Source: Planctomycetota bacterium (GTDB taxonomy: Bacteria; Planctomycetota; UBA1135; GCA-002686595). From it: a DNA stretch of 64,000 nt. The translations under genes were made by a program, and so were the position numbers. This document shows positions 7,015 through 46,197 of this stretch, in pieces (positions within the stretch are counted from its first letter, which is position 1; each line of letters starts with the position of its first letter). Where the stretch lies: NCBI GenBank assembly GCA_029259635.1, contig JAJDEU010000055.1, positions 1-64,000 of the forward strand. The letters are read 5' to 3'. The notes beneath the pieces are model-generated. The model was not told where the DNA came from and made no database searches. It saw nothing but the letters and a program-made list of their open reading frames with translations.

Positions 7015-7453
7015 TGGCGCGGTGAACTGTCAAGAGCCCCAAACGGCAATTCAACGTAAATGCCCCGTGAGCAGGTCGCCCAGCCGCTCCTTGTCGCCTG
7101 GGAAGCGACACACCTCATTCGCGAAGGCGGTCGTCCGTCCGGAATCCCTGTTCCCGGTTGTGCTCCTCACCAAGGCGCTTCCCTCTCCCCGTTCCTAGCG
7201 CAGCCTTCGGATCGTCGCCCAGACCTTTCCGGTCTGGGAGGACGCACGAAGACGCGTTTCGCTCCGCGCTCTTCGATCTGCGTTCCATCCGATGAGCGCG
7301 GGATCCGTCCGTCGCCGGGCTCTCGAGAAATGTGATTCGGTTTCGGAAGCGCCGCCCCTGACAGAGCAACGGGCTCTCGATGCCGGAGAGCGGCCGACGA
7401 GGTGCTCTCTCACTCGCCGGGTTTTTCATCACTTCTGCTCAGGGGATCTTCCT
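7015..7453. other. non-coding stretch between divergent genes
   Basis: Over 400 bases between the palindrome and the exo/endonuclease-like gene hold only short open frames, with no domains or credible start sites. Divergent promoters are expected here. The sequence AGGGGA at 7441-7446 is the likely ribosome-binding site of the following gene. Confidence 0.4.
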
Positions 7454-8305
7454 ATGCCTAAGTTCTCGTTCTTGTCGTGGAATGTTCGCATGTACAACGG
7501 CAGCAAGAAGCGCCTGGAGGACGCGGATCAGTTGATCACCGAGCTCGACCCAGACGTGATCGGGCTGCTCGAGTTCAAAGCCAAGAAGAAAGCGCGGGAG
7601 TTGATGTTCGATCGGTTTCCTGAGTACGACTGGAGTGCTACGGACAGCACCGGAAACCTCGAGGTCTTGATCGGTTTTCGCCGCGGGAAGTTCGATCAGG
7701 TGATCTTCTCGCAGAAGCGCACGTTCAACAACACGGAACGAACGCTTCGGCCCGGAGCACTCATCTCCGTCAAGACTCAGGGGCGCTGGTACAGCCTTCT
7801 GTATCTACACACCGACTCAGGAACGATGCACACGGACTACAAGAATCGGTGGAAGGTTTTTTCGAAGATCTGGAAACTCGAGGAGGCGCTGAAGAAACAC
7901 AGTCCGACGAAACAGCGCAGCTTGATCGTGCTGGGGGACCTGAACACGATGGGCAAAACGAATCCCGGCAAGCTGAGCGGAGCGGAAGAGATCGATGCAC
8001 TGGAGAAGAAGGCCAATAAGAACGGAATGGTGCTGCTGACCAAAGACGAGCCCAATACCTGGAGCCAGTGGGGCAAGGGGCCGCGCCAGAACAGGCGCAA
8101 ACTCAAGGTCAGCGAGCTGGGCGGCACGATGCACTCCGACCTCGACCACGTCCTGGCCAGTAAGAACCTCGACTTCGTGGCCCATGGCGCGGATGGCTCA
8201 TCGGCTATTCACGTGAAGGGCTGGCCGCAACTTTCCGGCAAAGAGCGCGTCGACTTTCTGTGGTCGCTCTCCGATCACAGCGCGCTGTTCGGCGAGGTGT
8301 GGTAG
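7454..8305 (+). CDS. endonuclease/exonuclease/phosphatase-family hydrolase
   Basis: A 283-residue metal-dependent hydrolase of the DNase I-like EEP fold. The family motifs are in order: FLSWNVRMYNG at the N-terminus, the catalytic Glu in DVIGLLEFKAKK, LGDLNTMG in the middle, SDLDHVLAS, and the terminal LSDHSALF. The fold covers nucleases, phosphodiesterases and lipid phosphatases, so the substrate cannot be named. ATG 7454 is preceded by AGGGGA at good spacing; the open frame extends further upstream but without support. No signal peptide is seen. It is probably a single-gene unit. Confidence 0.85.
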   Translation: MPKFSFLSWNVRMYNGSKKRLEDADQLITELDPDVIGLLEFKAKKKARELMFDRFPEYDWSATDSTGNLEVLIGFRRGKFDQVIFSQKRTFNNTERTLRPGALISVKTQGRWYSLLYLHTDSGTMHTDYKNRWKVFSKIWKLEEALKKHSPTKQRSLIVLGDLNTMGKTNPGKLSGAEEIDALEKKANKNGMVLLTKDEPNTWSQWGKGPRQNRRKLKVSELGGTMHSDLDHVLASKNLDFVAHGADGSSAIHVKGWPQLSGKERVDFLWSLSDHSALFGEVW

Positions 8306-8573
8306 CGGGACGGGTCCCAGGCGGCTCATAGAGGTCTATCAAGGACCACATTCACCGTCTTGAGAACCGCCGGAGAGCTTGTTTGTTTCGGTAAGCGTCA
8401 CAGCAGTCAGGCGCTTCGGAGCCGAGCCGAGTTCGTGTGGTTTCGGTGAAAGTGAACCGAGTCGATTTGCCGGCTCTCAAGATTCGGGTCGGGCTCTTTC
8501 TCAATAATGGATGCGCGGGTAGATTCAAACGCTGTTCCTGCTTGTGGCCGCCCGCGATTCCTTCGAAAGACCT

Positions 8574-9935
8574 ATGCGACTCAGTTATTTCGCGCTTGTC
8601 AGCGCCTTGATTCCGGCGCTCGCGTGTTCGCAACCGAAGAAATGGGCGACGGCTGAGAACCCGAATGTCGTGTTGATCATCATCGACACCCTGCGAGCGG
8701 ACAAACTGTCGAGCTACGGGCATGCCGAGGATCCCTCTCCCGCGCTCTCTCGACTGACCGAAAACGGGGTGCAGTTCGACTCGGTCTACGCCCAGGCGAG
8801 TTGGACTCTGCCCTCGGCGAGCTCGATGCTGACTTCGCAGTATCCGCGCACGATCGGAATTTACGGCGTCAACAGCGGGAGTCTTCCGGACCGGTTCACG
8901 ACCTTGGCGGAGGCGCTAAAAGCTGCGGGCTACACGACCTTCGGCGCGACGGCGAACCCGAACCTGAACACGATCGCCAACTTTCAGCAGGGCTTCGATG
9001 AGTACCTCGACTCCAACTTGTTTCCCGAGAGGAAGGGGAAGAAGGGCCAACCGACCAACAAGATCTCAAGTGGTCCCGCGTTGCGAACGGCTCCAGAGCT
9101 CTTCCAAGACGCCGTCGATTTCATTGACGCGACGAACAATGTTCAGCCTTACTTCCTCCAGTTCGATGTGATGGAAGTTCACGAGCACAACTTTCCCGAG
9201 TTGCTTCGCTCCGAGTACGCCGATGGATTCGAGGAGAGCGAGGACGCCGCCTACCTGCGCCGCATTCGCCAAGTCACGGACGATATCGAGGGATTCGTCG
9301 GGCGGCTCCGCGAGCTGGAGGGTTGGGAGCACACGCTCTTCGTGATCACGAGTGACCATGGCGAGGGCTTGAAGGATCACCCGGGAGTGGAACGCGCCCA
9401 TGCCCACGGATGGCAGCTGTACGATTCGCAGCTTCGCGTTCCGCTCCTGATATTCAACGAGTCGTGGATGATCGAGCCAAAACGCATTTCGCAATCCGTG
9501 CGGCTTCTCGATCTCTTGCCCACCGTCCTGGAGTTGGCCGGCACGCCGCCGCCGCTCGGTATCGAGGGCATTTCGCTGGTTCCCCTGATGACGGGCGCGG
9601 TGGAGGAAATCGAATTTCCCGACGCGCTCATCACCGAGACACACTTTCGCGGCGCGAACAAGATCTCCATTCACGCCCGGGAGTGGCAGTACATCCACAA
9701 TCGCGAAAAGCAGGCGGTGGGTCAGCCCCACGAGCTTCAGCATCGTGACCAAGTTCCCAACGGGCCTGCTACCGACGTCTCGAATCAGTACCCCAAAGTG
9801 TTGAAGGCACTCCAAGGCAAGATCGCCGCGTGGGAGCGAGCGCACCCCGAGAATCCTTCCACCGTGCAAACGGAAGAGTTGTCCGAGTCGGAGCTCGAGC
9901 AGCTCGAGGCGATCGGCTACATGGGCGATGAGTAG
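8574..9935 (+). CDS. sulfatase-fold lipoprotein with Thr at the formylglycine position (1)
   Basis: An alkaline phosphatase-superfamily hydrolase of 453 residues, exported as a lipoprotein: MRLSYFALVSALIPALAC has a lipobox with Cys18. Metal-binding motifs are present: NVVLIIIDTLRADKLSSYG near the N-terminus and VITSDHGEGLKDH in the C-terminal half. The active-site motif reads SWTLPSASSMLT where sulfatases have C/S-x-P-S-R, so Thr replaces the residue converted to formylglycine and Ala replaces the Arg. It may therefore be a phosphodiesterase or phosphotransferase, or a non-canonical sulfatase. Start 8574 fits the lipoprotein signal better than GTG 8544. A similar gene follows 84 bases downstream. 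Confidence 0.85.
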   Translation: MRLSYFALVSALIPALACSQPKKWATAENPNVVLIIIDTLRADKLSSYGHAEDPSPALSRLTENGVQFDSVYAQASWTLPSASSMLTSQYPRTIGIYGVNSGSLPDRFTTLAEALKAAGYTTFGATANPNLNTIANFQQGFDEYLDSNLFPERKGKKGQPTNKISSGPALRTAPELFQDAVDFIDATNNVQPYFLQFDVMEVHEHNFPELLRSEYADGFEESEDAAYLRRIRQVTDDIEGFVGRLRELEGWEHTLFVITSDHGEGLKDHPGVERAHAHGWQLYDSQLRVPLLIFNESWMIEPKRISQSVRLLDLLPTVLELAGTPPPLGIEGISLVPLMTGAVEEIEFPDALITETHFRGANKISIHAREWQYIHNREKQAVGQPHELQHRDQVPNGPATDVSNQYPKVLKALQGKIAAWERAHPENPSTVQTEELSESELEQLEAIGYMGDE

Positions 9936-34631: not shown

Positions 34632-34824
34632 CGCCTTTCTGCTGAGTGGAGGAGCATTCTCGCCGGGCGAGAGCTGATCAAGCGTGTTCAGGTTGCGAGC
34701 CAACTTGTACCGTACCGGGCCGCCGCGCCACCGCGCTACTGAGACCCCTTCGACCCACTCGGCACTTCCGCCGCGGGTCGAGATCCCTCGGGCAACCCGC
34801 CCGCAGCATACGAGGAGCACCGTT

Positions 34825-36219
34825 TTGAGCCGCGTCCGATTCGACTACACCCACGTCATGTCCGATCTCATCGGTCCCGAGCACGGCGTCACCGACAGCG
34901 ATCTTCAAGTCGAGGCCCCGCACGCGGGTGCCGCGCTCAAGAGCGTGCTCGCACGTCGCGAGGAAGACCTGCGCTGGCTCGACCTGCCGTACCAAACCGC
35001 GGTCCACGACGAGATTCTCGAGTACGCCGCCTCCGTCAAGGGACGCTTCAAGAACGTCGTGGTCCTCGGTATCGGCGGTTCGGCGCTCGGCAACATCGCA
35101 CTGCATGACGCGCTCAACGGACCCTTTCATAATTTGAATCCGCCCGAGGGCATTCCGCGTCTGTTCGTGCTCGACAATATCGATGCAGAGCTGATCGCTG
35201 GATTCCTCGAGAGCTTTGACGTCACCGAGACGCTGTTCAACGTGATCAGTAAATCCGGCGGCACAGCGGAGACGATGAGCCAGTTCCTCATCTTCCGCGA
35301 AGCGATCCTTCAGAAGCTCGGCGCGGATGCTCTCAAAGATCAGATGGTGATCACGACGGACGAGAAGAACGGAGTCCTGCGTGAGATCGTCGGGCGCGAG
35401 GGTTATCGATCCTTCATCGTTCCCGATGGTGTTGGCGGCCGTTTCAGCGTGTTGTCGCCCGTGGGGCTCTTGCCGGCCGCGCTGGTCGGGATCGACATCA
35501 AAGCGCTCTGCGCGGGTGCCGCGGAGATGGACGAGCGCTGCCGCTCGACGGATATCCTCAAAAACCCCGCGCTCTTGCATTCGTCGATTCAGACGCTGAT
35601 GCACCGCGACAAGGACAAAAACATCTCGGTCATGTTCTCCTACAGCCATCGCCTTAAGAGCATGGCCGACTGGTACGCGCAGCTGCTCGCCGAGTCGATC
35701 GGCAAGCGCAAGAGCAAAGAGGGCAAGGATATCTACACTGGCCCGACGCCCGTTCGCGCGGTCGGCGTGACGGATCAACACAGCCAGGTGCAGCTCTACG
35801 TCGAGGGCACCGAGGACAAGTGGTTCACCTTCCTGTCCGTCGACGAGCCCGACGTGAACGTCACAATTCCGAAAGCTTTCGACGACCTCGAAGGCGTGAG
35901 CTATCTCGGTGGGCGCACCTTGACCGAGCTCTTCCAGGCCGAGCGCGACGGCACGCGCATCGCGCTCGCCGAAGCCGAACGCCCGACCGCGACGATTCAC
36001 TTCGACAAGGTCGACGCGCACGCGATCGGTCAGTTGATCTTCATGCTCGAGCTCTCGGTGGCCGTCATGGGCGAGCACTACAAGGTCGACGCCTTCGACC
36101 AGCCCGGCGTCGAAGCCGGTAAGGTCGCCGCCTACGCGCTGATGGGACGCGACGGCTACGAGGAGCGTCGCGCGGAGATCGAGTCGTCGAAGGGCGATTG
36201 GAAAACCCGCGAGGTTTAG
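34825..36219 (+). CDS. pgi: glucose-6-phosphate isomerase
   Basis: Interconverts glucose 6-phosphate and fructose 6-phosphate. The 464-residue protein shows VVVLGIGGSALGNIALHDAL, the phosphate loop SKSGGTAETM, DGVGGRFSVLSPVGLLPAAL, and the C-terminal VDAFDQPGVEAGK with the active-site Gln/Lys region. The length of about 460 residues matches the shorter Bacillus-like PGI group. The start is taken as TTG 34825 because GAGGAG sits 7 bases before it; ATG 34858 is possible. Confidence 0.95.
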   Translation: MSRVRFDYTHVMSDLIGPEHGVTDSDLQVEAPHAGAALKSVLARREEDLRWLDLPYQTAVHDEILEYAASVKGRFKNVVVLGIGGSALGNIALHDALNGPFHNLNPPEGIPRLFVLDNIDAELIAGFLESFDVTETLFNVISKSGGTAETMSQFLIFREAILQKLGADALKDQMVITTDEKNGVLREIVGREGYRSFIVPDGVGGRFSVLSPVGLLPAALVGIDIKALCAGAAEMDERCRSTDILKNPALLHSSIQTLMHRDKDKNISVMFSYSHRLKSMADWYAQLLAESIGKRKSKEGKDIYTGPTPVRAVGVTDQHSQVQLYVEGTEDKWFTFLSVDEPDVNVTIPKAFDDLEGVSYLGGRTLTELFQAERDGTRIALAEAERPTATIHFDKVDAHAIGQLIFMLELSVAVMGEHYKVDAFDQPGVEAGKVAAYALMGRDGYEERRAEIESSKGDWKTREV

Positions 36220-36457
36220 CAGCTCGTGGCAAAAGTCATTCGCCCCATGAGCGGCGCCCTTCAGGCCAGGTCGGCACTCGAAAAGCTCGCTGAATCTACG
36301 GATTCGGCTGCGTTTTCGAGCGCCAACCTGACCAGAATTTCGCGGCTCATGAACCAAAGCACTTTCACCACGGACTGCTAGGCCGTCCGTTCATGGGACG
36401 CGGACGGGCGCTCAAGGGAAACCGACCATCCGTCGAGAGGTTTCTCTGGAGCCCTCC

Positions 36458-37318
36458 GTGAACAACTTTCCCCTGCACGAGCTGTTCGATGACATTCCGC
36501 GTCAGCGCATCGTCGACGTCGGAGCGAGCCCCATCGATGGAGCTCCGCCCTACAGCGCTCTCCGCGAGAGCAACCGAGCGGACTTAGTCGGTTTCGAACC
36601 CGACCGCGATCAGTTGCGAGCTCTTCACGAGCGCGGAGAGCGAAACGCCGTGTTTCTGCCGGAGGCGGTGGGCGACGGTCAGCCGGGAGTGCTGCACATC
36701 TGCAAGTCTCCAGGGATGACCTCGCTGCTCAAGCCCGATGCGCGGGTGCTCGCGCACTTCCACGGTTTCCCGGAGTGGGGCGAGGTCTTGCGCACAGAGC
36801 CCGTCGAGACGGTGCGGCTCGACGATTGCCCGGAGACGCGCGGAACCAGCTATCTCAAGCTGGACGTTCAGGGCGGTGAGCTGGCGGCTCTAACCGGCGC
36901 TCCCGAGCTCCTGGCGAGTGCGCTAGCCGTTCACGTCGAGGTCCAGTTCATTCCCTTCTACGAGGGACAGCCGTTGTTCGCCGAGCTCGATCAGGCTCTG
37001 CGCGCTGCCGGCTACTGCCTGCATCGGTTCCTTCCGATTCACAGTCGAGTGTTCCAACCGTTGCTCGTCGACGAGAATATCTACTCGGGACTCAGCCAGG
37101 TGCTCTGGTCCGACGCCGTCTACTTCAAGAACTTCGTCGACTTGGATCAGCAAGCGCCGAGCGCTCTGCTTCAGCTCGCCGAAATCGCGAACGACCTCTA
37201 CCACTCGGTGGACTTCGCAGCGTTGGCTCTCAGGCATGTCGACCGACAGACGGGCAGTCGGCGCGAGGCAAAATACCTGCAGGCTCTCGCCGGCATGACT
37301 CCCGTCCTGCTGGGCTAG
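36458..37318 (+). CDS. FkbM-family SAM-dependent methyltransferase
   Basis: A 286-residue methyltransferase. The SAM-binding motif is IVDVGASPIDGAPPYSAL, followed by LVGFEPDRDQLRAL, the FkbM-typical SLLKPDARV and the acidic strand TSYLKLDVQGGELAALTGAPELL, with VHVEVQFIPFYEGQPLFAELDQALRAAGY near the end of the fold. Such enzymes O-methylate sugars or polyketides. GTG 36458 is the likely start. It is transcribed toward the minus-strand aldolase gene, with about 30 bases between their 3' ends. The acceptor is unknown. Confidence 0.85.
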   Translation: MNNFPLHELFDDIPRQRIVDVGASPIDGAPPYSALRESNRADLVGFEPDRDQLRALHERGERNAVFLPEAVGDGQPGVLHICKSPGMTSLLKPDARVLAHFHGFPEWGEVLRTEPVETVRLDDCPETRGTSYLKLDVQGGELAALTGAPELLASALAVHVEVQFIPFYEGQPLFAELDQALRAAGYCLHRFLPIHSRVFQPLLVDENIYSGLSQVLWSDAVYFKNFVDLDQQAPSALLQLAEIANDLYHSVDFAALALRHVDRQTGSRREAKYLQALAGMTPVLLG

Positions 37319-37346
37319 CCGATCGGGCGCGAGCCGCAGGGGAGAG

Positions 37347-38066
37347 CTACAAGCCGCAGCGGTTCTCGAGCGTGTTCGTCGTCGTGATTCCGAGCAGCTT
37401 GCGCGTCTCGAGCAGCTTGCGGACTTGTTCCGGCGGCAGAGGCTCGAGTCCACCCTTCACGGTGTGCGCGAGGTAGAGAATCTTTGCGGTGTGCTCCAGC
37501 ATGTCGAGCTTCTTGAAGGCATCCATCAGGTTCGGACCGATCGTGACCGAGCCGTGGTTCTGCATCAGCATCGTGTCGGAACAGCGCAAGAGATCGCGAA
37601 TCGAGTCGGCGAGCTCGTGGGTTCCAGGCGTTCCGTAGGGCGCGGTTGGAATGCCGCCGATCGTCACGACGATCTCCGGAATCATCGGGAGCTGGAGGTC
37701 GATACCCGCGATGGTCATCGCGACGGCGTGCGGGGGGTGAGCGTGTACGACCGCACGCATCTCCGGGCGAAGCTCGTAGGCCGCGAGGTGAATGCCCGTC
37801 TCGGAAGAACACTTGGGACCGTTGTCGATCACCTCGCCTTGCATGTTGATGTGCGCGAGGTGGTGGGGCTTCAGGTAGCCCTTCATCGCGCCCGTCGGCG
37901 TGATCAGGATCGTGCCATCGGCCAGACGTGCGGAAATGTTGCCGTCGGCCGCGACGATGAAGTTGCGCTCGTAGCAGAGCCGGCCGATGCGGCAGATGGC
38001 CGAGCGCAGCCGCGACTCTTCTTCGGGCCAGGAGCCGTCTTGGATTCCGTCGGTGGGATCGTTCAC
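37347..38066 (-). CDS. class II aldolase (L-fuculose-phosphate aldolase-like)
   Basis: A zinc-dependent aldolase of 239 residues. The metal and catalytic residues are visible: Glu89 in SSETGIHLAAY, His108 and His110 in VVHAHPPHAVAM and His171 in LMQNHGSVTIGP. FIVAADGNISARL and ILITPTGAMKGYL are the phosphate- and glycine-rich signatures of the AraD/FucA family. In planctomycete microcompartments such an aldolase releases lactaldehyde from fuculose or rhamnulose phosphate. It is the last gene after three BMC-P shell genes and overlaps the third by 4 bases, which supports that role here. Confidence 0.9.
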   Translation of the reverse strand: MNDPTDGIQDGSWPEEESRLRSAICRIGRLCYERNFIVAADGNISARLADGTILITPTGAMKGYLKPHHLAHINMQGEVIDNGPKCSSETGIHLAAYELRPEMRAVVHAHPPHAVAMTIAGIDLQLPMIPEIVVTIGGIPTAPYGTPGTHELADSIRDLLRCSDTMLMQNHGSVTIGPNLMDAFKKLDMLEHTAKILYLAHTVKGGLEPLPPEQVRKLLETRKLLGITTTNTLENRCGL

Positions 38067-38386
38067 GGCGTCAGTCTAGCGACCGATTCCCGGTGCTGCT
38101 CCTCGTAGACGTGCTCGCCCTCCAATTCGACGAAATCGACGATGCCGAGCACGATGGTCTTGACCGGCCCGTTCGGGGCGGCGAGTAATTGTCGCCCGGC
38201 GTTGCCCTCATCCACGACGAGAACGCGGTCACCGACGCCGGCTCCGGTGTGATCGATCCCGATCCGCGTGAGACCGCTGGGTGCGCCACTCGGGGTCAGC
38301 GGCCGCAGTAGCAAGAGCGTCTTGCCCTCCAGAATCGGTGTCTGAATGGGGGAGACCACCGTCCCTATGACGTCGGCGAGAAACAC
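38063..38386 (-). CDS. EutN/CcmL-type microcompartment vertex protein (BMC-P) 3
   Basis: A 107-residue BMC-P protein that forms pentamers capping the vertices of a protein shell. It begins with MFLADVIGTVVSP in place of the usual M-x-[LI]-[GA]-x-V-x-G-x-V-V, keeps the central GVGDRVLVVDEGNAGRQL, and ends TIVLGIVDFVELEGEHVYEEQ; the segment VLGIVD is diagnostic. It is followed by 15 extra residues. GTG start overlapping the stop of the preceding BMC-P gene. It belongs to a run of three paralogues. Confidence 0.92.
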   Translation of the reverse strand: MFLADVIGTVVSPIQTPILEGKTLLLLRPLTPSGAPSGLTRIGIDHTGAGVGDRVLVVDEGNAGRQLLAAPNGPVKTIVLGIVDFVELEGEHVYEEQHRESVARLTP

Positions 38387-38682
38387 TAGCGGCGCGCCTC
38401 GCGAACCAGGTCGCGTCCGAAGGCGCTGGCCTCTTCGACGTAGCCGATGATCGCGGCATCGACCGGAACGAAGGTGGTCGGGCAGGCGAGCGCGCCCTCG
38501 CGACCGTCGACGAAGTGAACGATGTCACCGGGACCTGAGGCAATCGCGGCGCAGGCTACGAGCGGCGTGCCCGCGTCTTGTCCTTCCTCGTCGAGCGGTT
38601 GAATCCACTGGAAGGGGACCGACTCGAGACCTTCGTAGGCCGTCGTCGCGACGACGCGGCCGATGACACGCGCGAGATACAA
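38386..38682 (-). CDS. EutN/CcmL-type microcompartment vertex protein (BMC-P) 2
   Basis: A 98-residue BMC-P protein: MYLARVIGRVVATTAYEGL at the N-terminus, a middle VACAAIASGPGDIVHFVDGREGAL with the conserved GPGD turn, and VPVDAAIIGYVEEAS in place of V-x-A-x-[IV]-[VI]-G-I-V-D. It starts with TTG, one base after the stop of the first BMC-P gene. It has diverged from its two neighbours, suggesting a distinct vertex position rather than a recent copy. Confidence 0.92.
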   Translation of the reverse strand: MYLARVIGRVVATTAYEGLESVPFQWIQPLDEEGQDAGTPLVACAAIASGPGDIVHFVDGREGALACPTTFVPVDAAIIGYVEEASAFGRDLVREARR

Positions 38683-38683
38683 G

Positions 38684-38986
38684 CTAGGCCCACTTCTCGT
38701 AGATGTTGTCGCCGCCCAGATCCCACGAGTCGACGATCGCCATGACGACTGCGTCGCACGGCCGGTTCTCGGTCAGGCTTGTCTGGCGCGCGCTCGAACC
38801 GGTTGCGTAGAGCACCATGTCGCCGGGACCGGCCTGCACCGAGTCGGCCGCCACCACGTAGCTCTCCGTCGGTTCGTTCTGCGGGTCGTGAACCTGAACG
38901 ACGAGTAGCTTCAGGTTCGCCAGCTTCTCGTCTTTTTGGCTCGCGACAACACTGCCGACTACTTTTCCGATTTGCATGGCGAGCAT
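38684..38986 (-). CDS. EutN/CcmL-type microcompartment vertex protein (BMC-P) 1
   Basis: A 100-residue BMC-P protein and the closest of the three to the consensus: MQIGKVVGSVVASQKDEKLANLKLLVVQ, AGPGDMVLYATGSSARQT, then PCDAVVMAIVDSWDL. The true start may be ATG 38977 (MQIGKV) rather than 38986. It lies 24 bases after the prolyl isomerase gene and directly before the second BMC-P gene, all on the minus strand. Shell pentamers would need hexameter-forming BMC-H proteins, which are not in view. Confidence 0.93.
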   Translation of the reverse strand: MLAMQIGKVVGSVVASQKDEKLANLKLLVVQVHDPQNEPTESYVVAADSVQAGPGDMVLYATGSSARQTSLTENRPCDAVVMAIVDSWDLGGDNIYEKWA

Positions 38987-39010
38987 GTTACTGCTTGCCC
39001 CGGTCGCGCG

Positions 39011-40456
39011 TCACGCGTCGAGGATCGTGACCATGCTCTCGCGCGGCAGAACCTCGACTAGAAAGCGTTTGCGGAGCGTATCGCGCACGTGACCGCGCAT
39101 CGTCTCCCAGGTCGGCGCCGGGCGGTGCTCGCTGAGCCACAGGAGGACGACGCCGGTGGCATTTCGAATCGGCGGCATGATTCGCCCACCCTCGGGCAGT
39201 GGTCCGCTCCGCTTGAGGTGCTCAAAAGCGGCGCTGCGCAGCTCGCCGAGGCCGGTTCCGACCCGACTGAGCCACCCCAGCTCGCCGCCATTCGTGCGCG
39301 TCTTCGAGTCTTCCGAGTGTCGTCGAGCCGCGGCTTCGAACTCGCTCTCGGAGTGAATGTCGCGCGCCAGCTCTTCGAGCTGCGCGACGGCTTGATCGTA
39401 GAGCCGCGGATTCTTGGGAGTCCCGACTTCGGCGGCGCGCAAAAAGATCACGCGCGTACGCAGCGCCTCCCCGAAGGTGCCGTCAAAGAGCGCGCGCTCT
39501 TCGTCGTAGGCCGCGCGCAGAGCATCGTCCGAGTGGCTGCGCAGAATCCAGAGCTGCGAGAGCGCCGTGACTTGCACCGCGGGATCCGTCCGCAGAAGCT
39601 CGATCGTCATGCCCTGCGTAGAGAGCAGGTGCTCAAAACTAGCGCCTCGATAAGCGGGATTGGACTCGGCTTGAATGCGTCGGCGTTCGATCTCCAGCGT
39701 GAGCGATTTGTCGTAGGTCTCGTCCGAGATATCCGGCATGCGCGCGCGAAGGGCTTTGGCGACGAGCATCTGATAGCAGGTCTCGCGCACGGCTTCGGGA
39801 TCCAGACTCAAGACCAGCTCAGCCTCGTACTCCTCGGCCGTCACGATCGCGTCACCACATCGCCCCGCGATTCCGTTCGACCACGGAGGTGCGGGCGCTT
39901 CCACGCCGCGAGCCTTGAGCTCTTCGTCGATCCAGAGGTCTTGTTGACCCTTCGAGACCGGCTGGTCGGGCGCGATTCCCAGCGCTTCGCGACACAAGCG
40001 TTCCTGCACGATGGAGAAGCGCAACAAGCGGCGGAACTCCGCCTCGTCGATGTTGTTCGCTCTCAGGTTCGAGAGCACGTCGCCGGTCTCGCCCGCCGCT
40101 CGCATCTGACGGTTGAGTTCCTCGATGCGTCGATCGAGCGCCTCGTCGCCGACTTCCATGTGGCGCTCGACTGCCATGCGCTCCAGCAGTCGCGTCTTTA
40201 GAAGGTGGGTCAGCGCGCTGCGACCCTCGCCGGTCATCGCATAGCGTTTGACCAGAACCGGGTGAAGCTCGGCCCGCATCAGCTCGACGCCGTTGCCCCA
40301 GGCTACCCGGGAGCCCTCCTTGGGCGGAGTCTCGGGGGAGTCCTCCGTGGGCTGGGCCGCGCGCTCGGGCGCTGCTTGCACGCGAGGGGTGCGGCAGGAA
40401 TGCGCGGGCGGGAGGAGGAGCGGAGCGGCGACTAGCGCGAAGAGCGGGTGGATCAT
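39011..40456 (-). CDS. parvulin-type peptidyl-prolyl isomerase, exported
   Basis: A 481-residue SurA/PpiD-like protein. ATG 40456 starts a signal peptide (MIHPLFALVAAPLLLPPAHSC); the open frame upstream of it is not coding. Two helical chaperone segments follow, one with ALTHLLKTRLLERMAVERHMEVGDEALDRRIEELNRQMR. The rotamase domain lies at the C-terminus: RVIFLRAAEVG..., SEFEAAARRHSEDSKTRTNGGELGWLSRVGTGLGELRSAAFEHLKRSGPL and GVVLLWLSEHRP. It is probably a periplasmic folding factor. It lies 24 bases upstream of the BMC-P genes and 65 bases after the AAA+ gene. Confidence 0.85.
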   Translation of the reverse strand: MIHPLFALVAAPLLLPPAHSCRTPRVQAAPERAAQPTEDSPETPPKEGSRVAWGNGVELMRAELHPVLVKRYAMTGEGRSALTHLLKTRLLERMAVERHMEVGDEALDRRIEELNRQMRAAGETGDVLSNLRANNIDEAEFRRLLRFSIVQERLCREALGIAPDQPVSKGQQDLWIDEELKARGVEAPAPPWSNGIAGRCGDAIVTAEEYEAELVLSLDPEAVRETCYQMLVAKALRARMPDISDETYDKSLTLEIERRRIQAESNPAYRGASFEHLLSTQGMTIELLRTDPAVQVTALSQLWILRSHSDDALRAAYDEERALFDGTFGEALRTRVIFLRAAEVGTPKNPRLYDQAVAQLEELARDIHSESEFEAAARRHSEDSKTRTNGGELGWLSRVGTGLGELRSAAFEHLKRSGPLPEGGRIMPPIRNATGVVLLWLSEHRPAPTWETMRGHVRDTLRKRFLVEVLPRESMVTILDA

Positions 40457-40521
40457 CACCCGGGCAGGATATCGAAGGCTGCCGGAATTCTCGACGCCGG
40501 GCGCGATTCCTCTTCTAGCGC

Positions 40522-41829
40522 TTACTCTTCGATCCGCAGCTCGGGAATCCCTGCGCGGATACCGATCCGGAGCCAGGGACGCTCGCGCTTGGTCTCGAGC
40601 AGGAGCTCGGCCAGCGGGCCTTCGATCGACCGTCGAATGGCCCGGCGAATCTCTCGGGCGCCACTCTCGACCGCAAAGCCATTCTTCGCGATCCAGCCGG
40701 CGACGGCGGGGGTGAAGGCGACGCGGCGGCCGCGCTTGCGGACGCGGGCGACGAGCTCCGACAGCTGCTTCTGCGCGATCTTGCGAGCGTCCGCGAGATC
40801 CAGAGCGCGGAAGCGAACGGTCTCGTCCACGCGACCGAGGAACTCGGGCGGGAAGTTCTCGCGCAGTTCGCGGGTGACGATCTCGCCAACGGCGTCGTCG
40901 TTCAGTTCGACTGAGGAGCCGAAGCCGACGCGATTGGACTCGCGCTGGACGTTCTCGGCTCCGATGTTCGAGGTCATCACGATGAACGAGCGATCGAAGG
41001 GAACGCTCTGGCCCTTGCCGTCGGTCAGGTGACCCTCGTCGAGAATCTGGAGCAGCAGGTTGTGCATGCGCGGGTGCGCTTTTTCGATCTCGTCGAAGAG
41101 CACAATGCTCTCGGGATTCTTGGCGATGGCTTCGGTGAGCTGGCCGCCGTCTCCGTGACCGACGTAGCCGGGCGGCGCGCCGATGAGCTTGGAGTATTCG
41201 TGCGCCATCGCGAACTCGGTGCAGTCGATGCGCACGAAGGCGTCTTCGTTGCCGAGCACTTCGGCAGCGAGAGCGCGGCACAGCTCGGTCTTGCCCGTGC
41301 CGGTGCGCCCGACGAAAAGGAATGAGGCCAGCGGGCGATGGTCTTCCGCGAGGCCAGCGGCAGCGCGGCGAACCGAAGCGACGACCGTCTGAACGGCTTG
41401 GTCTTGGCCGATGACGCGCTCGTTGAGCCGCTCCTCCAGCAGTGAGGAGCGTCGGGCCAGCCGCGTGGCGAGTTTGGTCTTCGGAGAGGGCTGCTTGCGC
41501 TCGCGGGTGACCTGTTCCACCGCGTTGTATTCGTCGGCCAGGCTGACCGCGTGGATCTCAAGACCCGGATTGACCGAGACGCACAGTTGGTACAGGTGAT
41601 CTTCCGCAGCGGTCGGGTCGCAGGGGTGCAACTGTGCGAGAGAGAGCGCCATATTCTCTCCGCCGAACTCCTCCATGCACACCCGGATCACCGACTGGCG
41701 GTAGCCCGATCGATTCATGTCGGATTCCACCGCCAAGTTCACGTCGTCGGGCCCGAGAACCCGAACTCGCACGAAACGATCGGCGAGATCGAGGTACTTG
41801 AAGACGGTGTTGGTTCGGGAGGAGCGCAC
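40522..41829 (-). CDS. ClpB/ClpA D2-like single-ring AAA+ ATPase
   Basis: A 435-residue AAA+ unfoldase. The module at residues 130-435 has Walker A GRTGTGKTE (174-182), the pore loop GYVGHGDGG (220-228), Walker B IVLFDEIEKAHP (241-252), sensor MTSNIGAENV and a ClpB D2-small domain (EFLGRVDETVRFRALDLADARKIA). It matches the second ring of ClpB, but there is no first ring and no Clp N-domain. The N-terminal 125 residues (FVRVRVLGPDDVNLAVESDMNRSGYRQSV ...) are a separate domain I do not recognise. GTG start. Its 3' end lies 65 bases before the prolyl isomerase gene. Confidence 0.88.
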   Translation of the reverse strand: MRSSRTNTVFKYLDLADRFVRVRVLGPDDVNLAVESDMNRSGYRQSVIRVCMEEFGGENMALSLAQLHPCDPTAAEDHLYQLCVSVNPGLEIHAVSLADEYNAVEQVTRERKQPSPKTKLATRLARRSSLLEERLNERVIGQDQAVQTVVASVRRAAAGLAEDHRPLASFLFVGRTGTGKTELCRALAAEVLGNEDAFVRIDCTEFAMAHEYSKLIGAPPGYVGHGDGGQLTEAIAKNPESIVLFDEIEKAHPRMHNLLLQILDEGHLTDGKGQSVPFDRSFIVMTSNIGAENVQRESNRVGFGSSVELNDDAVGEIVTRELRENFPPEFLGRVDETVRFRALDLADARKIAQKQLSELVARVRKRGRRVAFTPAVAGWIAKNGFAVESGAREIRRAIRRSIEGPLAELLLETKRERPWLRIGIRAGIPELRIEE

Positions 41830-41969
41830 GGGATGTGGGGAGGCGTTGGAGCGTGATTGGACCGCGGTATCCAGCCTGTTTCGGAATCCGCGCCCCGAGA
41901 TCTTGACTGTCGTCTGGTTTCCAACTCGTCGGTTCCAAATTGCTCGCTACACTTTCCGCCCAAAACCTC

Positions 41970-43022
41970 ATGACTCCTCCCAACCTCGAAATTAAATACC
42001 TCGCCACTCTGGTTCATCGCGGGCATCTCAGCCGCGAAGATGCGGAGCGAATCCTGCCTGCAGTGCAGTCAGGTGCGTCTGTTGACGACGAGCTGATTGA
42101 AGTCCTCGAATGGGACCCGCGCCTGGTTCGGAAGTTGCGTCGAACGCGTGGCGGCGAGATCCCAGAAATTCCCGGCTACACGATTTTGGGAAAGCTCGGA
42201 ACGGGCGGCACGGCAGACGTCTTTCGGGCGCGGGAAAAGAAGACGAATAAGCAATTTGCGCTAAAGATCCTCAACGCGGAGAGCACGCGCAATGCCGCCA
42301 CTCGCAAGGCCTTTGTGGCGGAGGCGCGACTCCTGGAGCGCCTCTCCCATCCGGGGCTGGTCCGTTGTGCCGGCATCGCGAAGAGTGGCGCTACTTACTT
42401 CTCGCGGCTCGAGTTTATCGACGGCAAAACTCTGCTCGAAGTCCTGGACGCGGGTCGTATCTTCGACGAAGAAGCGGCCCTTCGTGTCGTGATGGAAGTG
42501 GCTCAGGTACTCGGCTATCTCGAATCCGAGGGCGTTGTTCACCGCGACGTCAAGTCGGGCAACATCATGTTGACGGCTCTCGGTGGAACCAAGTTGATCG
42601 ACCTCGGCTTTGCGGCCGAGGGCAAGGAATCCGATGCCTCGCCCGAGAAGACGGTGGGGACGGTGGCCTATCTCTCACCCGAACAAGCGAAGGGTGGTGC
42701 CGCCGCCGATGCGCGTTCGGACATCTACAGCTTGGGCGTCACCCTGTTTCACATCGTGATCGGACACCTCCCGTTCGAGAGCTCCGACGACCGCGAGATT
42801 CTGCGCATGCAGATCATGGACTCGCTCTCTTCGCCCGAGCTCAAGAGCCGTGGTATCTCGCCGCACTTGCAGTACTTCATCGAGAAGATGATGGCCAAGG
42901 AAGTCGAGCACCGCTATCAGTCCTGGACCGAGCTTGCGGAGGACATCCAGGACCAAGTGCTCGGACGTGAGGGCTTGGACTTTGAGGCGCAGGCGCGCCG
43001 CGACTCGAAGCGCCGGCGCTAG
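41970..43022 (+). CDS. cytoplasmic Ser/Thr protein kinase
   Basis: A Hanks-type kinase of 350 residues. The glycine loop is LGKLGTGGTADVFRA (73-87), Lys99 lies in FALKIL, the catalytic loop is HRDVKSGN (191-198), and the metal motif is DLG (211-213) in place of DFG. The activation segment GTVAYLSPEQAKGG and the SDIYSLGVTLFHIVIGHLPF helix are typical. There is no transmembrane segment, unlike PknB-type receptors; instead about 68 N-terminal residues form a small helical domain (SREDAERILPAVQSGASVDDELIEVL). An FHA protein, a possible phosphothreonine reader, begins the secretion operon 4.7 kb downstream. Confidence 0.93.
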   Translation: MTPPNLEIKYLATLVHRGHLSREDAERILPAVQSGASVDDELIEVLEWDPRLVRKLRRTRGGEIPEIPGYTILGKLGTGGTADVFRAREKKTNKQFALKILNAESTRNAATRKAFVAEARLLERLSHPGLVRCAGIAKSGATYFSRLEFIDGKTLLEVLDAGRIFDEEAALRVVMEVAQVLGYLESEGVVHRDVKSGNIMLTALGGTKLIDLGFAAEGKESDASPEKTVGTVAYLSPEQAKGGAAADARSDIYSLGVTLFHIVIGHLPFESSDDREILRMQIMDSLSSPELKSRGISPHLQYFIEKMMAKEVEHRYQSWTELAEDIQDQVLGREGLDFEAQARRDSKRRR

Positions 43023-43042
43023 CAGCAAGTCGCGAGCGGGTA

Positions 43043-44041
43043 CTACTCGTTCACGCGGGTGAGCTTCGTGACTCGGCCGTATAGGTTCCAGTCGAGCACG
43101 AACAAGTTGCCGGTTGCGTCCCAAGCGGCGTGGTGAGGCGACAGAAACGTACCGTTCTTCCAGTCGGAAGTGGGAATCTTGAACTGACCGCGCTGGTCCG
43201 TATCGGGATTGTCGCCGAGGTGCAGGAGCAGCTGGTCGTTTTCGTCGAGGATGGTGACGCGACCATCGAGGTCGGCGATGACGAGGTTCTTTCCGCGGCC
43301 AAAGATCGAGCAAGGCCGGCGGAACTCGACGTCGAGCTTTCCGATCAGCTCGCCCTCGAGAGAAAAGCGTTGGATGCGATGGTTGGCGCGGTCGGCGACG
43401 AGCAGGGTCGCGGGCTCCTCGCGCGTGTCGACCATCAATCCGTGGGGGATGTTGAATTTGCCGAGGTTCGCCCCGAGTCCACCGATCGAGCGCAGGTAAT
43501 TACGGTTCGCGTCGTAGAGGTGAACCCAACTCCGTCCGTAACCGTCGGCGACAAAGAGCCTCCCGTCCGGCGCCATGGCGACGCTCGTCGGATGAAACTT
43601 TTGCTCCTCGCCGTAGAGTCCCTCGGCGTCCGGAATGCCGAGCCTCCAGAGCAGCTCGCCGTCCAGCGAGAGCGCGATGACTTCTTGGGTGCGCAGCTGC
43701 GTGAGGAGTAGCTGTTCTTCGCCGTCCCGCTCGACCATCAGCATGCCGTGAATCCCCCGAGCGAACTGCTCGCCAATGGTGAGCAAGAGATTGCCCGCTT
43801 CATCGAAAACCAGAACGGCGCGCGGACTGTTGGTGCCGACGTAGATGCGTCCCGACTTGTCGAAGACAACGCCCGCGTGAGTGGGGCCCAGCCGCTCGTG
43901 GTCCGGGGCCAGAGGCCACGCGCTCTCCCAGGTGTAGAGCTGAGCTCCGCTGCCGAGTCGCAGCTCGGGTTGAGCGGGCATCGATTCGTCGGCGAGTGCG
44001 AGTGCGAGCAGGCCGGCGAGTATCATGGCTGTTCGATGCAT
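43043..44041 (-). CDS. exported NHL-repeat propeller protein
   Basis: A 332-residue protein with signal sequence MHRTAMILAGLLALALADE. It contains NHL-type blades: HAGVVFDKSGRIYVGTNSPRAVLVFD, VAMAPDGRLFVADGYGRSWVHLYDANRNYLRSIGG, and LLVADRANHRIQRFSLEGELIGKL. It has only one or two Cys and no enzymatic motif, so a ligand-binding or scaffold role is likely. It converges on the kinase gene with about 20 bases between them. Confidence 0.85.
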   Translation of the reverse strand: MHRTAMILAGLLALALADESMPAQPELRLGSGAQLYTWESAWPLAPDHERLGPTHAGVVFDKSGRIYVGTNSPRAVLVFDEAGNLLLTIGEQFARGIHGMLMVERDGEEQLLLTQLRTQEVIALSLDGELLWRLGIPDAEGLYGEEQKFHPTSVAMAPDGRLFVADGYGRSWVHLYDANRNYLRSIGGLGANLGKFNIPHGLMVDTREEPATLLVADRANHRIQRFSLEGELIGKLDVEFRRPCSIFGRGKNLVIADLDGRVTILDENDQLLLHLGDNPDTDQRGQFKIPTSDWKNGTFLSPHHAAWDATGNLFVLDWNLYGRVTKLTRVNE

Positions 44042-44155
44042 GGGCTCCAGATTAGCGGAGCGCGGCCTCGGTGGCTGCTGCTTCGCCCGTCAATTGCCGT
44101 TATCGCCAGGCTCGCGCGGAAGAAAGCACGAGCTCGGCAGTAGACTAGCTTCGCG

Positions 44156-44998
44156 ATGGAACGCACTTCGAACGAGGAGCCGGGGACCGAGGGCGTGGTG
44201 CCCTTTCGATTTAGCTGCAAGCGCAGCGGGAACTGTTGCCGCGTAACCGGCGGGTTCGCTTGGGTGGAAGGGGAGGAGCTCGAGCCGCTCGCGCTCGCGG
44301 CCGGATTGGAACTCGCGCAGTTTGTCGAACGGCATATTCGGCAGGTCAGCGACCCGGTGAGCGGCGAGCTGCGCATGGCGCTCCGCGATGGCGAAGAGTC
44401 GCGCTGCAGCCTGCTCGAAGGCGCCAATCACTGCTCGGTGTACGACGCGCGTCCCTCACACTGTCGGCAGTTTCCGTTCTGGGCGAGCGTCTTGAATAGT
44501 CGCGAAGGCTTCGAGCGCGCGCACGCCACCTGTCCGGGGCTCGAACCGCTCGTGGCGAGCGCCGTGCGCGACGAGGCCTTTTCAAGACTGGAAGCGGTGT
44601 ATCGAGAAGTCGATGCCTTCATCGAAAAGGCTCAACCGGTTTGCATCGTGCGCGGTGTGTGTTGCCGCTTCGAGGAAGCGGACCATCAGCTCTACGCGAC
44701 CGGCCTCGAGGCTGACTTCGCGGCGGCGCGGGAGCCCGAAGCGCCGGCGCCGGAGGCCGAAGGGCGCTGTCCCTATCACGTGGCGGGACGCTGCACGGCG
44801 CGAAGCGCCCGCCCGCTCGGCTGTCGGACCTACTTCTGCGACACGCGCACGACCTCCGTGCTCGAGGAAGCGAACGAGTTCTTCTCGGCTCGCATTCAGG
44901 AAATTGAGCGCGAGCTCGACTACCCGCACTCCTTTGTTCGCTTTCCGAGCGCGATGCTGGAGCGCGGGGTCGGCACTTCTTCCGGTGAACTCGCGTGA
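44156..44998 (+). CDS. YkgJ-type cysteine cluster protein with two metal sites
   Basis: A 280-residue protein with two tandem zinc/iron-chelatase-like (YkgJ) units. Unit 1: FSCKRSGNCCRVTGGF, then CSLLEGANHCSVYDARPSHCRQFPFW. Unit 2: CIVRGVCCRFEE, then CPYHVAGRCTARSARPLGCRTYFCD. Each gives a CxxxxCC ... C ... C-x7-10-C pattern, so each should bind one cluster. Single-unit YkgJ proteins are common; a tandem form is unusual. Its stop overlaps the following gene (GTG 44995) by 4 bases, so the two are co-translated. The biochemical role is unknown for the family. Confidence 0.88.
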   Translation: MERTSNEEPGTEGVVPFRFSCKRSGNCCRVTGGFAWVEGEELEPLALAAGLELAQFVERHIRQVSDPVSGELRMALRDGEESRCSLLEGANHCSVYDARPSHCRQFPFWASVLNSREGFERAHATCPGLEPLVASAVRDEAFSRLEAVYREVDAFIEKAQPVCIVRGVCCRFEEADHQLYATGLEADFAAAREPEAPAPEAEGRCPYHVAGRCTARSARPLGCRTYFCDTRTTSVLEEANEFFSARIQEIERELDYPHSFVRFPSAMLERGVGTSSGELA

Positions 44999-46197
44999 GG
45001 TTCGTCGCGGTTCTGGTGCTCGTCGTGGTGGCGCTGATCGGCGGAGCGGGGCTCTGGAACCAGCTGCACGATGAGGAGCTCTCGCCGCTGCCCGTTGAAG
45101 CGCAAAGGTCGACTTCCGTCGAGGATTCGCGCGATGAGTCGAAGCGGGTCGCCGTCGAACCGAGCGCCGCGCCGAAGAAAGTGGTCGCCGAGCCTCAGTC
45201 CGATGACTACGAGCGCACGCAGGAGCTCAGCGCGATCAACGACCGCGGAATTGCTCGGCTCGGTGAGGGAAAAAACCGTTTGGCAATCGCGTTGTTCGAA
45301 GAGTGCTATCTCGAGCGACCGGATATCGAGGCCTACGGTTTTAATCTCAGCGAAGGGCTCTATCGGCTCGCGTCGGATATCGCTCAGTCAGGTGAAGCGA
45401 CGGAAGCCGAGGCGCTGCTCGTTCGGGCCATCGAGATCGCTCCGGGTCGCAAGAAGCTGTCGAAGCTGCTCGCGCGTTGGCGCAAGACGGCGGAAGAGGA
45501 GGGCGAACTCTGGCAATACGAGACCGACCACTTCGAGCTCGTCTTCGACAGCGAGCGCACCGACATTCTCTTCGGTGCGCAGGATGTGCTCGATGTCTTA
45601 GAGGAGGGTTATCTCGAGTTTCGCGCACTCTTCGCCCATGACCCGATCGCCTCCGGACGTCAGAGGATTCGGGTTGTTCTCAGTTCGCGCTCGGATTTCC
45701 AGCGCGCGACCGGACTCGGTGAGTGGGCCGGTGGTGCCTATGACGGAACCATTCGTCTGCCGCTACGCGATCTCGACGAACAGCGCGCGAGTTGGACGCG
45801 CATCTTGCGACACGAGCTCGGACACGTCTGGATTCGCGAGGTTGCGGGGCGAAACGTCCCGGGTTGGTTGAACGAAGGTTTCTGTCAGTGGTTGGAGGGT
45901 GAGCGAGCCCCGCTGATCGAACATGCCGAGCGCGCGCTTCAAGGCCAAAAGCTGTTCAGCCTGGCGGAACTCACCGGCTCACTGATTCACTGGAGCGACG
46001 CCTCCGAAGTGGGGCGCGCCTACGCTCAGGCTTTTCTTTTCCTCGAGAGCCTGATGAAGACTTATGGAATGAACGCTGTGCTCGCGATGGCGAAGGGTTG
46101 CCAGGAGAACATCGACCCCGCGGTTTCCTTCGAGCGAGAGACCTTGGTCTCGCTGAGCGTGGCCTTCGACGATTTCGTCGGGACGCTCGCGAAGTAA
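44995..46197 (+). CDS. membrane-anchored TPR-containing gluzincin-type metallopeptidase
   Basis: A 400-residue protein anchored by RFVAVLVLVVVALIGGAGLW (2-21). TPR-like helices occupy residues 75-165 (IARLGEGKNRLAIALFEECYLERPDI, then ATEAEALLVRAIEIAPG). The zinc motif HELGH is at 273-277 (WTRILRHELGHVWI) and Glu294 (WLNEGFCQWLEG) follows as the gluzincin third ligand, spaced 17 residues as in the peptidase_MA-like group. No substrate is known. GTG start inside the end of the YkgJ-like gene. A hairpin 70 bases after its stop probably ends transcription. Confidence 0.85.
   Translation: MRFVAVLVLVVVALIGGAGLWNQLHDEELSPLPVEAQRSTSVEDSRDESKRVAVEPSAAPKKVVAEPQSDDYERTQELSAINDRGIARLGEGKNRLAIALFEECYLERPDIEAYGFNLSEGLYRLASDIAQSGEATEAEALLVRAIEIAPGRKKLSKLLARWRKTAEEEGELWQYETDHFELVFDSERTDILFGAQDVLDVLEEGYLEFRALFAHDPIASGRQRIRVVLSSRSDFQRATGLGEWAGGAYDGTIRLPLRDLDEQRASWTRILRHELGHVWIREVAGRNVPGWLNEGFCQWLEGERAPLIEHAERALQGQKLFSLAELTGSLIHWSDASEVGRAYAQAFLFLESLMKTYGMNAVLAMAKGCQENIDPAVSFERETLVSLSVAFDDFVGTLAK

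What the first reader, a model, noticed from the sequence alone, without database searches (positions are those of the whole stretch)
37347..38986. Triple BMC-P cluster with an aldolase but no visible BMC-H shell genes
Three EutN/CcmL-type vertex genes lie head to tail and are followed with overlap by a FucA-like aldolase. Known planctomycete (PVM) microcompartments, which degrade fucose and rhamnose, also have several BMC-P genes, but together with BMC-H shell proteins, an aldehyde dehydrogenase and other enzymes. None of these lies within 37 kb upstream or 26 kb downstream. The locus may be split, or the three pentamers may serve a different shell.
Basis: partly seen in the sequence, partly recalled or inferred. 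Interest (0 to 1): 0.65.

Follow-up and report, generated by a model that had tools for sequence, protein, structure and literature searches.

The report
Satellite vertex-gene cluster of split microcompartment
Three genes for the corner pieces of a bacterial protein organelle, together with an aldehyde-producing enzyme, sit about 73,000 bases away from the genes for the organelle's walls and its main enzyme; this split arrangement is conserved in a whole family of uncultured planctomycetes and resembles satellite clusters already described elsewhere.

Summary
In detail: three tandem EutN/CcmL (BMC-P) genes and a class II (FucA-like) aldolase lie on the minus strand at 38986-37347, with no BMC-H gene in the window. 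The missing shell genes exist. About 73 kb further on, on the same contig, lie BMC-H, a CoA-acylating aldehyde dehydrogenase, BMC-H and a CcmP/HO-5816-like BMC-T; a second contig continues with BMC-H, BMC-T, two further BMC-P and BMC-T. The window cluster is therefore a satellite locus holding a complete "BMC-P triplet" plus the signature aldolase. The split is old: it recurs throughout this family of uncultured Planctomycetota and in two sister families. In a closed relative and three others the triplet is the only source of pentamers while BMC-H and BMC-T lie elsewhere, so it must cap that shell. Each pentamer is orthologous, in order, to those of Acidobacteria (ACI-like) and Latescibacterota loci. 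The fucose/rhamnose (PVM) reading fails: no fucose isomerase, no fuculo- or rhamnulokinase, no PduL. HO type I satellites (two BMC-P plus aldolase) are published precedents, so this is a new member of a known kind. Its unusual point is five BMC-P genes per genome. The substrate remains inferred.

The parts
38684..38986 (-). BMC-P1, vertex pentamer; best solved-structure match is the EutN/CcmL-type pentamer of the Haliangium ochraceum shell (5v74, 100 bits)
   Evidence: PF03319 103 bits; PDB phmmer E 5e-28; orthologous to P1 of ACI/Latescibacterota triplets
38386..38682 (-). BMC-P2, vertex pentamer (TTG start)
   Evidence: PF03319 67 bits; P2 clade with outgroup P2, support 96
38063..38386 (-). 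BMC-P3, vertex pentamer (GTG start, overlaps the P2 stop by 1 base)
   Evidence: PF03319 64 bits; P3 clade
37347..38066 (-). class II (FucA-like) aldolase, presumed signature enzyme; overlaps P3 by 4 bases; the only PF00596 protein found in the genome; keeps the H-x-H, distal H and catalytic-type Glu positions
   Evidence: PF00596 161 bits; sole hit; invariant columns E89, H108, H110, H171 of A1

Best explanation
The cluster is a satellite locus of a split metabolosome. It encodes a full BMC-P triplet, the pentamers that close the vertices of the shell, in one operon-like run with a class II aldolase. The facets (two or more BMC-H), the gated double-disc BMC-T (CcmP/HO-5816 type), a second BMC-T and the CoA-acylating aldehyde dehydrogenase come from a main locus 73 kb away. 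Shown: the gene content, the absence of BMC-H near the triplet, its co-occurrence with the main locus, and genomes in which the triplet is the only pentamer source for that shell. Inferred: the aldolase cleaves a ketose-1-phosphate into DHAP and a short aldehyde, which is turned into acyl-CoA by the encapsulated aldehyde dehydrogenase. Acetaldehyde is my best guess, because the dehydrogenase scores best against the acetylating acetaldehyde dehydrogenase family and the same genome has an EutB-EutC-EutL ethanolamine satellite that would also feed acetaldehyde in.
For: Shell genes elsewhere in the genome. Exactly five BMC-P genes, three satellite plus two main, in 31 of 37 genomes of the family. 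Main loci of closed G016 and of G043, G047, G039 contain BMC-H, AldDH and BMC-T but no BMC-P, and their triplets lie elsewhere. Aldolase and AldDH occur together in 36, neither in 22, one alone in 3 of 61 genomes; single-contig G030 lacks all of them. Triplet orthology with fused loci. P1 and the double-disc BMC-T have H. ochraceum shell proteins as best solved-structure matches. AldDH: TIGR02518, 506 bits. EutB/EutC/EutL.
Against: No expression, proteomic or imaging evidence. The C51/C55 junction is inferred (same tetranucleotide signature) and implies a local duplication. G033 has the main locus but no triplet or aldolase was found (91% complete, about 90 contigs), so two main-locus pentamers might suffice there. 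The AldDH score is below the TIGR02518 cut-off (506 against 620), so its substrate is open. The co-occurrence test is not corrected for shared ancestry.
Confidence: 0.85

Rival explanations
1. A split PVM-type compartment that degrades L-fucose and L-rhamnose through fuculose/rhamnulose-1-phosphate to DHAP and lactaldehyde.
For: Planctomycetota host; class II aldolase and three BMC-P.
Against: No L-fucose isomerase; the single FGGY kinase is glycerol kinase; no PduL; the main locus has a double-disc BMC-T like HO-5816 and CcmP; I recognised no classic PVM locus among the 80 closest aldolases, while ACI- and Latescibacterota-type loci are there. The genome is about 90% complete, and rhamnose isomerase was not searched.
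Confidence: 0.05
2. The three pentamers belong to another shell, or are orphan pentamers with a non-shell role.
For: They are never beside BMC-H in the planctomycete loci held; the main locus of this family has two BMC-P of its own.
Against: In four relatives the triplet is the only BMC-P set and there is one BMC-H/AldDH locus; presence and absence go together across 61 genomes; orthologous triplets sit beside BMC-H in other phyla.
Confidence: 0.04
3. The aldolase is not cargo but a cytosolic salvage enzyme, for example the last step of a DHAP shunt (MtnA followed by an aldolase giving acetaldehyde and DHAP), and only shares the operon with the pentamer genes.
For: MtnA is present; it is the only class II aldolase found in the genome; DHAP-shunt chemistry as in PMC10986504. 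No dedicated FGGY sugar kinase other than glycerol kinase.
Against: MtnA is also present in relatives without the compartment, so it does not track it. Relatives of the aldolase sit beside shell genes in several phyla. The two ideas are compatible if the shunt's aldehyde is made inside the shell.
Confidence: 0.2

Closest known systems
Type I HO (Haliangium ochraceum-type) BMC with its aldolase satellite (Sutter et al. 2021, PMC8217296)
   Same: BMC-P genes plus an aldolase in a satellite apart from the main shell/AldDH locus; CcmP/HO-5816-like double-disc BMC-T; an additional Eut-module satellite; P1 closest to the H. ochraceum pentamer in the PDB
   Different: Here all three triplet members, not two, are in the satellite, and the main locus carries two other BMC-P genes; host is Planctomycetota; AldDH phylogeny not tested
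ACI BMC of Acidobacteria (Sutter et al. 2021, PMC8217296)
   Same: Class II aldolase with an orthologous BMC-P triplet in the same order; AldDH lies away from the triplet
   Different: ACI keeps BMC-H next to the triplet and aldolase; here BMC-H lies elsewhere; aldolase only about 40-43% identical
FRAG BMCs (Sutter et al. 2021, PMC8217296), reported also in Planctomycetes
   Same: Shell genes scattered over several places, with a BMC-P triplet; here at least four places (window cluster, main locus, C1 BMC-T, C53 EutL)
   Different: FRAG types are defined by shell-protein composition that could not be scored here; most FRAG genes are remote from known enzymes, whereas this satellite has the aldolase
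PVM BMC (Planctomycetes/Verrucomicrobia, fucose/rhamnose)
   Same: Phylum, class II aldolase, three BMC-P
   Different: PVM is one locus with BMC-H and works on fucose/rhamnose; here split, no fucose isomerase or fuculo-/rhamnulokinase found, no PduL

Membership tests
Satellite BMC locus (Axen 2014; Sutter 2021) | Only one of PF03319/PF00936 present, shell genes contiguous | tested here: met
   Three contiguous PF03319 genes; nearest PF00936 on the contig about 73 kb away
Satellite BMC locus (Axen 2014; Sutter 2021) | A separate main locus with both BMC-H and BMC-P exists in the genome | tested here: met
   C51 end and C55: BMC-H, BMC-T, two BMC-P, AldDH. Because of the aldolase it would be 'satellite-like' in Axen's stricter wording
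BMC-P triplet (Sutter 2021) | Three paralogues from three distinct, recurrent clades | tested here: met
   P1, P2, P3 fall in three groups, each with the same-position gene of ACI and Latescibacterota loci (support 83-96, few columns); the published colour clades themselves were not available
HO-type BMC | Satellite of BMC-P plus aldolase, apart from the main locus | tested here: met
   three BMC-P instead of two
HO-type BMC | CsoS1D- or CcmP-like double-disc BMC-T | tested here: met
   Best PDB hit HO-5816 at 189 bits, CcmP at 188 bits
HO-type BMC | AldDH on the HO/SPU5/SPU7 branch | not tested
   No reference AldDH set on hand
PVM BMC | Fucose/rhamnose pathway (isomerase and kinase) feeding the aldolase | tested here: not met
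   No PF07881; only FGGY kinase is GlpK; RhaA not searched; genome about 90% complete
PVM BMC | BMC-H in the same locus as BMC-P and aldolase | tested here: not met
   for this genome; for 29 related loci
PVM BMC / complete metabolosome core | PduL-type phosphotransacylase | tested here: not met
   No PF06130 in the genome; a PTA_PTB-family protein is present
ACI BMC | Class II aldolase, BMC-P triplet and BMC-H in one locus | tested here: not met
   BMC-H is 73 kb away
FRAG BMC | Match to FRAG-specific shell-protein HMMs | not testable with these tools
   The published HMM set was not available

The most novel reading that the evidence does not exclude
This planctomycete family runs one shell with five conserved, distinct pentamers in two separately located sets. 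The ancient triplet travels with the aldolase, and an added pair (P4/P5, their own clade) travels with the facets and with DUF711/ACT genes. The two sets could give vertices with different roles, for example cargo-specific assembly or alternative vertex plugs.
Probability: 0.25. Interest if true: 0.55.

Novelty: new member of a known kind. Interest (0 to 1): 0.36.

Why it matters
It shows that vertex genes and the signature enzyme can be stably separated from facet genes across a whole family of bacteria, so locus-based surveys that require BMC-H next to BMC-P can miss or misfile such compartments. Why microcompartments keep several pentamer paralogues is described as unexplained (PMC8217296). 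Relatives with only the triplet, with all five, or apparently with only the extra pair are natural experiments on that question.

Tried and rejected
PVM fucose/rhamnose pathway: rejected, isomerase and kinases missing. A different or missing shell: rejected by genome-wide PF00936 and relatives. C55 as a contaminant: rejected by tetranucleotide profile (0.92 to own contigs against 0.65-0.83 for relatives). MtnA as a marker of compartment function: led nowhere, it is present with and without the compartment. A slightly odd tetranucleotide profile at C51:84-102 kb led nowhere: ordinary-looking long reading frames (mreB/mreC-like and large transporter-like by eye), no Rfam match, no long repeats. 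No structure prediction was run: homology was already clear.

Full report
OBSERVATION. The window carries, on the minus strand, BMC-P1 38986-38684, P2 38682-38386, P3 38386-38063 and a class II aldolase 38066-37347, with Pfam scores of 103, 67, 64 (PF03319) and 161 bits (PF00596). P2/P3 and P3/aldolase overlap by 1 and 4 bases and P1/P2 are one base apart, which points to one operon. The three pentamers are only 26-33% identical to each other, so they are distinct paralogues, not recent copies. No PF00936 gene is in the window.

THE MISSING SHELL. The window is C51:1-64000 of a 5.5 Mb assembly in 62 contigs (about 90% complete). The genome has ten BMC-domain matches and five BMC-P. On the same contig, about 73 kb from the triplet, lie BMC-H (C51:111887), a 617-aa acylating aldehyde dehydrogenase (TIGR02518 best, 506 bits against a cut-off of 620), BMC-H (114103) and the start of a double-disc BMC-T, where the contig ends. 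The end of contig C55 reads, in the matching direction, AldDH C-terminus, BMC-H, BMC-T (PDB best HO-5816 189 bits, CcmP 188 bits), P4, P5, PduT-like BMC-T, an ACT protein, DUF711, a response-regulator-like protein and an MFS-like transporter (the last two by eye). Relatives carry this as one uninterrupted locus with a single AldDH, so C51 and C55 very probably adjoin with a local duplication of AldDH-BMC-H-BMC-T. C55 has the genome's own tetranucleotide signature. The split conclusion does not depend on C55, since C51 alone has BMC-H, AldDH and BMC-T. Two more satellites exist: an RnfC/PduS-like gene with a PduT-like BMC-T (C1) and EutB-EutC-EutL (C53).

CONSERVATION. In the same family 31 of 37 genomes have exactly five BMC-P. 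Where both loci are on one contig they are 74, 92, 101 and 90 kb apart (G000, G011, G036, G016). An aldolase alignment (A1) finds 29 named loci (L064-L092) with at least 50% identity, nearly all labelled Planctomycetota MAGs. Twenty-seven have three BMC-P upstream of the aldolase, two show only one (one of them at a contig edge), and none has BMC-H in the DNA held (up to 8 kb each side). Aldolase and AldDH co-occur: both in 36, neither in 22, one alone in 3 of 61 genomes (Fisher p about 3e-13, not corrected for kinship). The single-contig genome G030 lacks everything.

DECISIVE COMPARISON. G016 (6.9 Mb, two contigs) and G043, G047 and G039 (two other families) have exactly three BMC-P, all in the aldolase satellite. 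Their main loci have AldDH, BMC-H and two kinds of BMC-T but no BMC-P. With only one BMC-H/AldDH locus and one set of pentamers, the triplet must serve that shell. These same main loci also show no ACT or DUF711 match, so P4/P5 and ACT/DUF711 look like one added module.

ORIGIN. In a tree of 88 BMC-P (100 columns, so many forks are weak), P1, P2 and P3 each group with the same-position gene of Acidobacteria, Latescibacterota, Gemmatimonadota and KSB1 loci, while P4 and P5 form their own pair of clades. In those other phyla the triplet, aldolase and BMC-H lie within a few kilobases. The simplest reading is that an aldolase-triplet block was separated from the facet genes before these planctomycete families diverged; the direction is inferred, not shown.

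FUNCTION. Aldehyde-generating signature enzyme plus acylating AldDH is the usual metabolosome logic (PMC4207490): here sugar phosphate to DHAP plus aldehyde, then acyl-CoA. The aldolase keeps the H-x-H and distal His columns and the Glu column (E89, H108, H110, H171 invariant in A1); their match to FucA's zinc and catalytic residues is from general knowledge. Fucose/rhamnose use is unlikely: no L-fucose isomerase, single FGGY kinase is GlpK, no PduL, though the genome is about 10% incomplete and rhamnose isomerase was not tested. Acetaldehyde is favoured, weakly, by the AldDH family and the Eut satellite. A DHAP-shunt source (MtnA; chemistry in PMC10986504) is possible but MtnA does not track the compartment.

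KNOWN OR NEW. Sutter et al. 2021 (PMC8217296) describe BMC-P triplets, type I HO satellites with two BMC-P and an aldolase, Eut-module satellites for HO, and scattered FRAG compartments in Planctomycetes. This case fits that picture with all three triplet genes in the satellite and two extra pentamers in the main locus. I file it as a new member of a known kind; whether it is HO or FRAG could not be decided here.

Noticed in passing
L014:10199-12052 (C51:112198-114051) and orthologues in L056, L058, L060, L061, L063, L144, L151-L153; C55 end: The acylating aldehyde dehydrogenase ends in a long low-complexity linker, usually a short helix-like stretch (LSxxEIQxIMxxAG, an encapsulation-peptide candidate) and a conserved cysteine motif GCP(L/M)GPCxxC with a further Cys near the end (TGxC). 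The motif is present in family f1 including G016; none was found in the f4/f8 main loci.
   Followed up: partly
end of C51 (L014) and end of C55 (L015): AldDH, BMC-H and double-disc BMC-T occur in two diverged copies (80-87% identical shell proteins, AldDH tails 36%) at two contig ends, probably a tandem duplication that broke the assembly; nearly all relatives have one AldDH.
   Followed up: partly
L015:9632-10278 (P4, P5), 7079-8962 (ACT, DUF711): Two extra BMC-P genes form their own clade and are absent together with ACT and DUF711 genes in the main loci of G016, G043, G047 and G039, suggesting an added module of unknown role.
   Followed up: partly
C53 (L017:8689-11596) and C1 (L016:6932-8799): Further satellites: EutB-EutC-EutL and an RnfC/PduS-like gene with a PduT-like BMC-T. 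Equivalent sets are in G019 (Eut) and in G011 and G032 (RnfC-PduT).
   Followed up: partly
window 34684-45000 and C51:98000-112000: Both loci sit in conserved surroundings: PGI, PPIC-type PPIase, Clp-type AAA ATPase and protein kinase beside the satellite; mreB-like and rodA-like genes upstream of the main locus.
   Followed up: no
G033 (L061): This relative has the complete main locus with P4/P5 but no triplet or aldolase was found; either missing sequence or a real loss.
   Followed up: no
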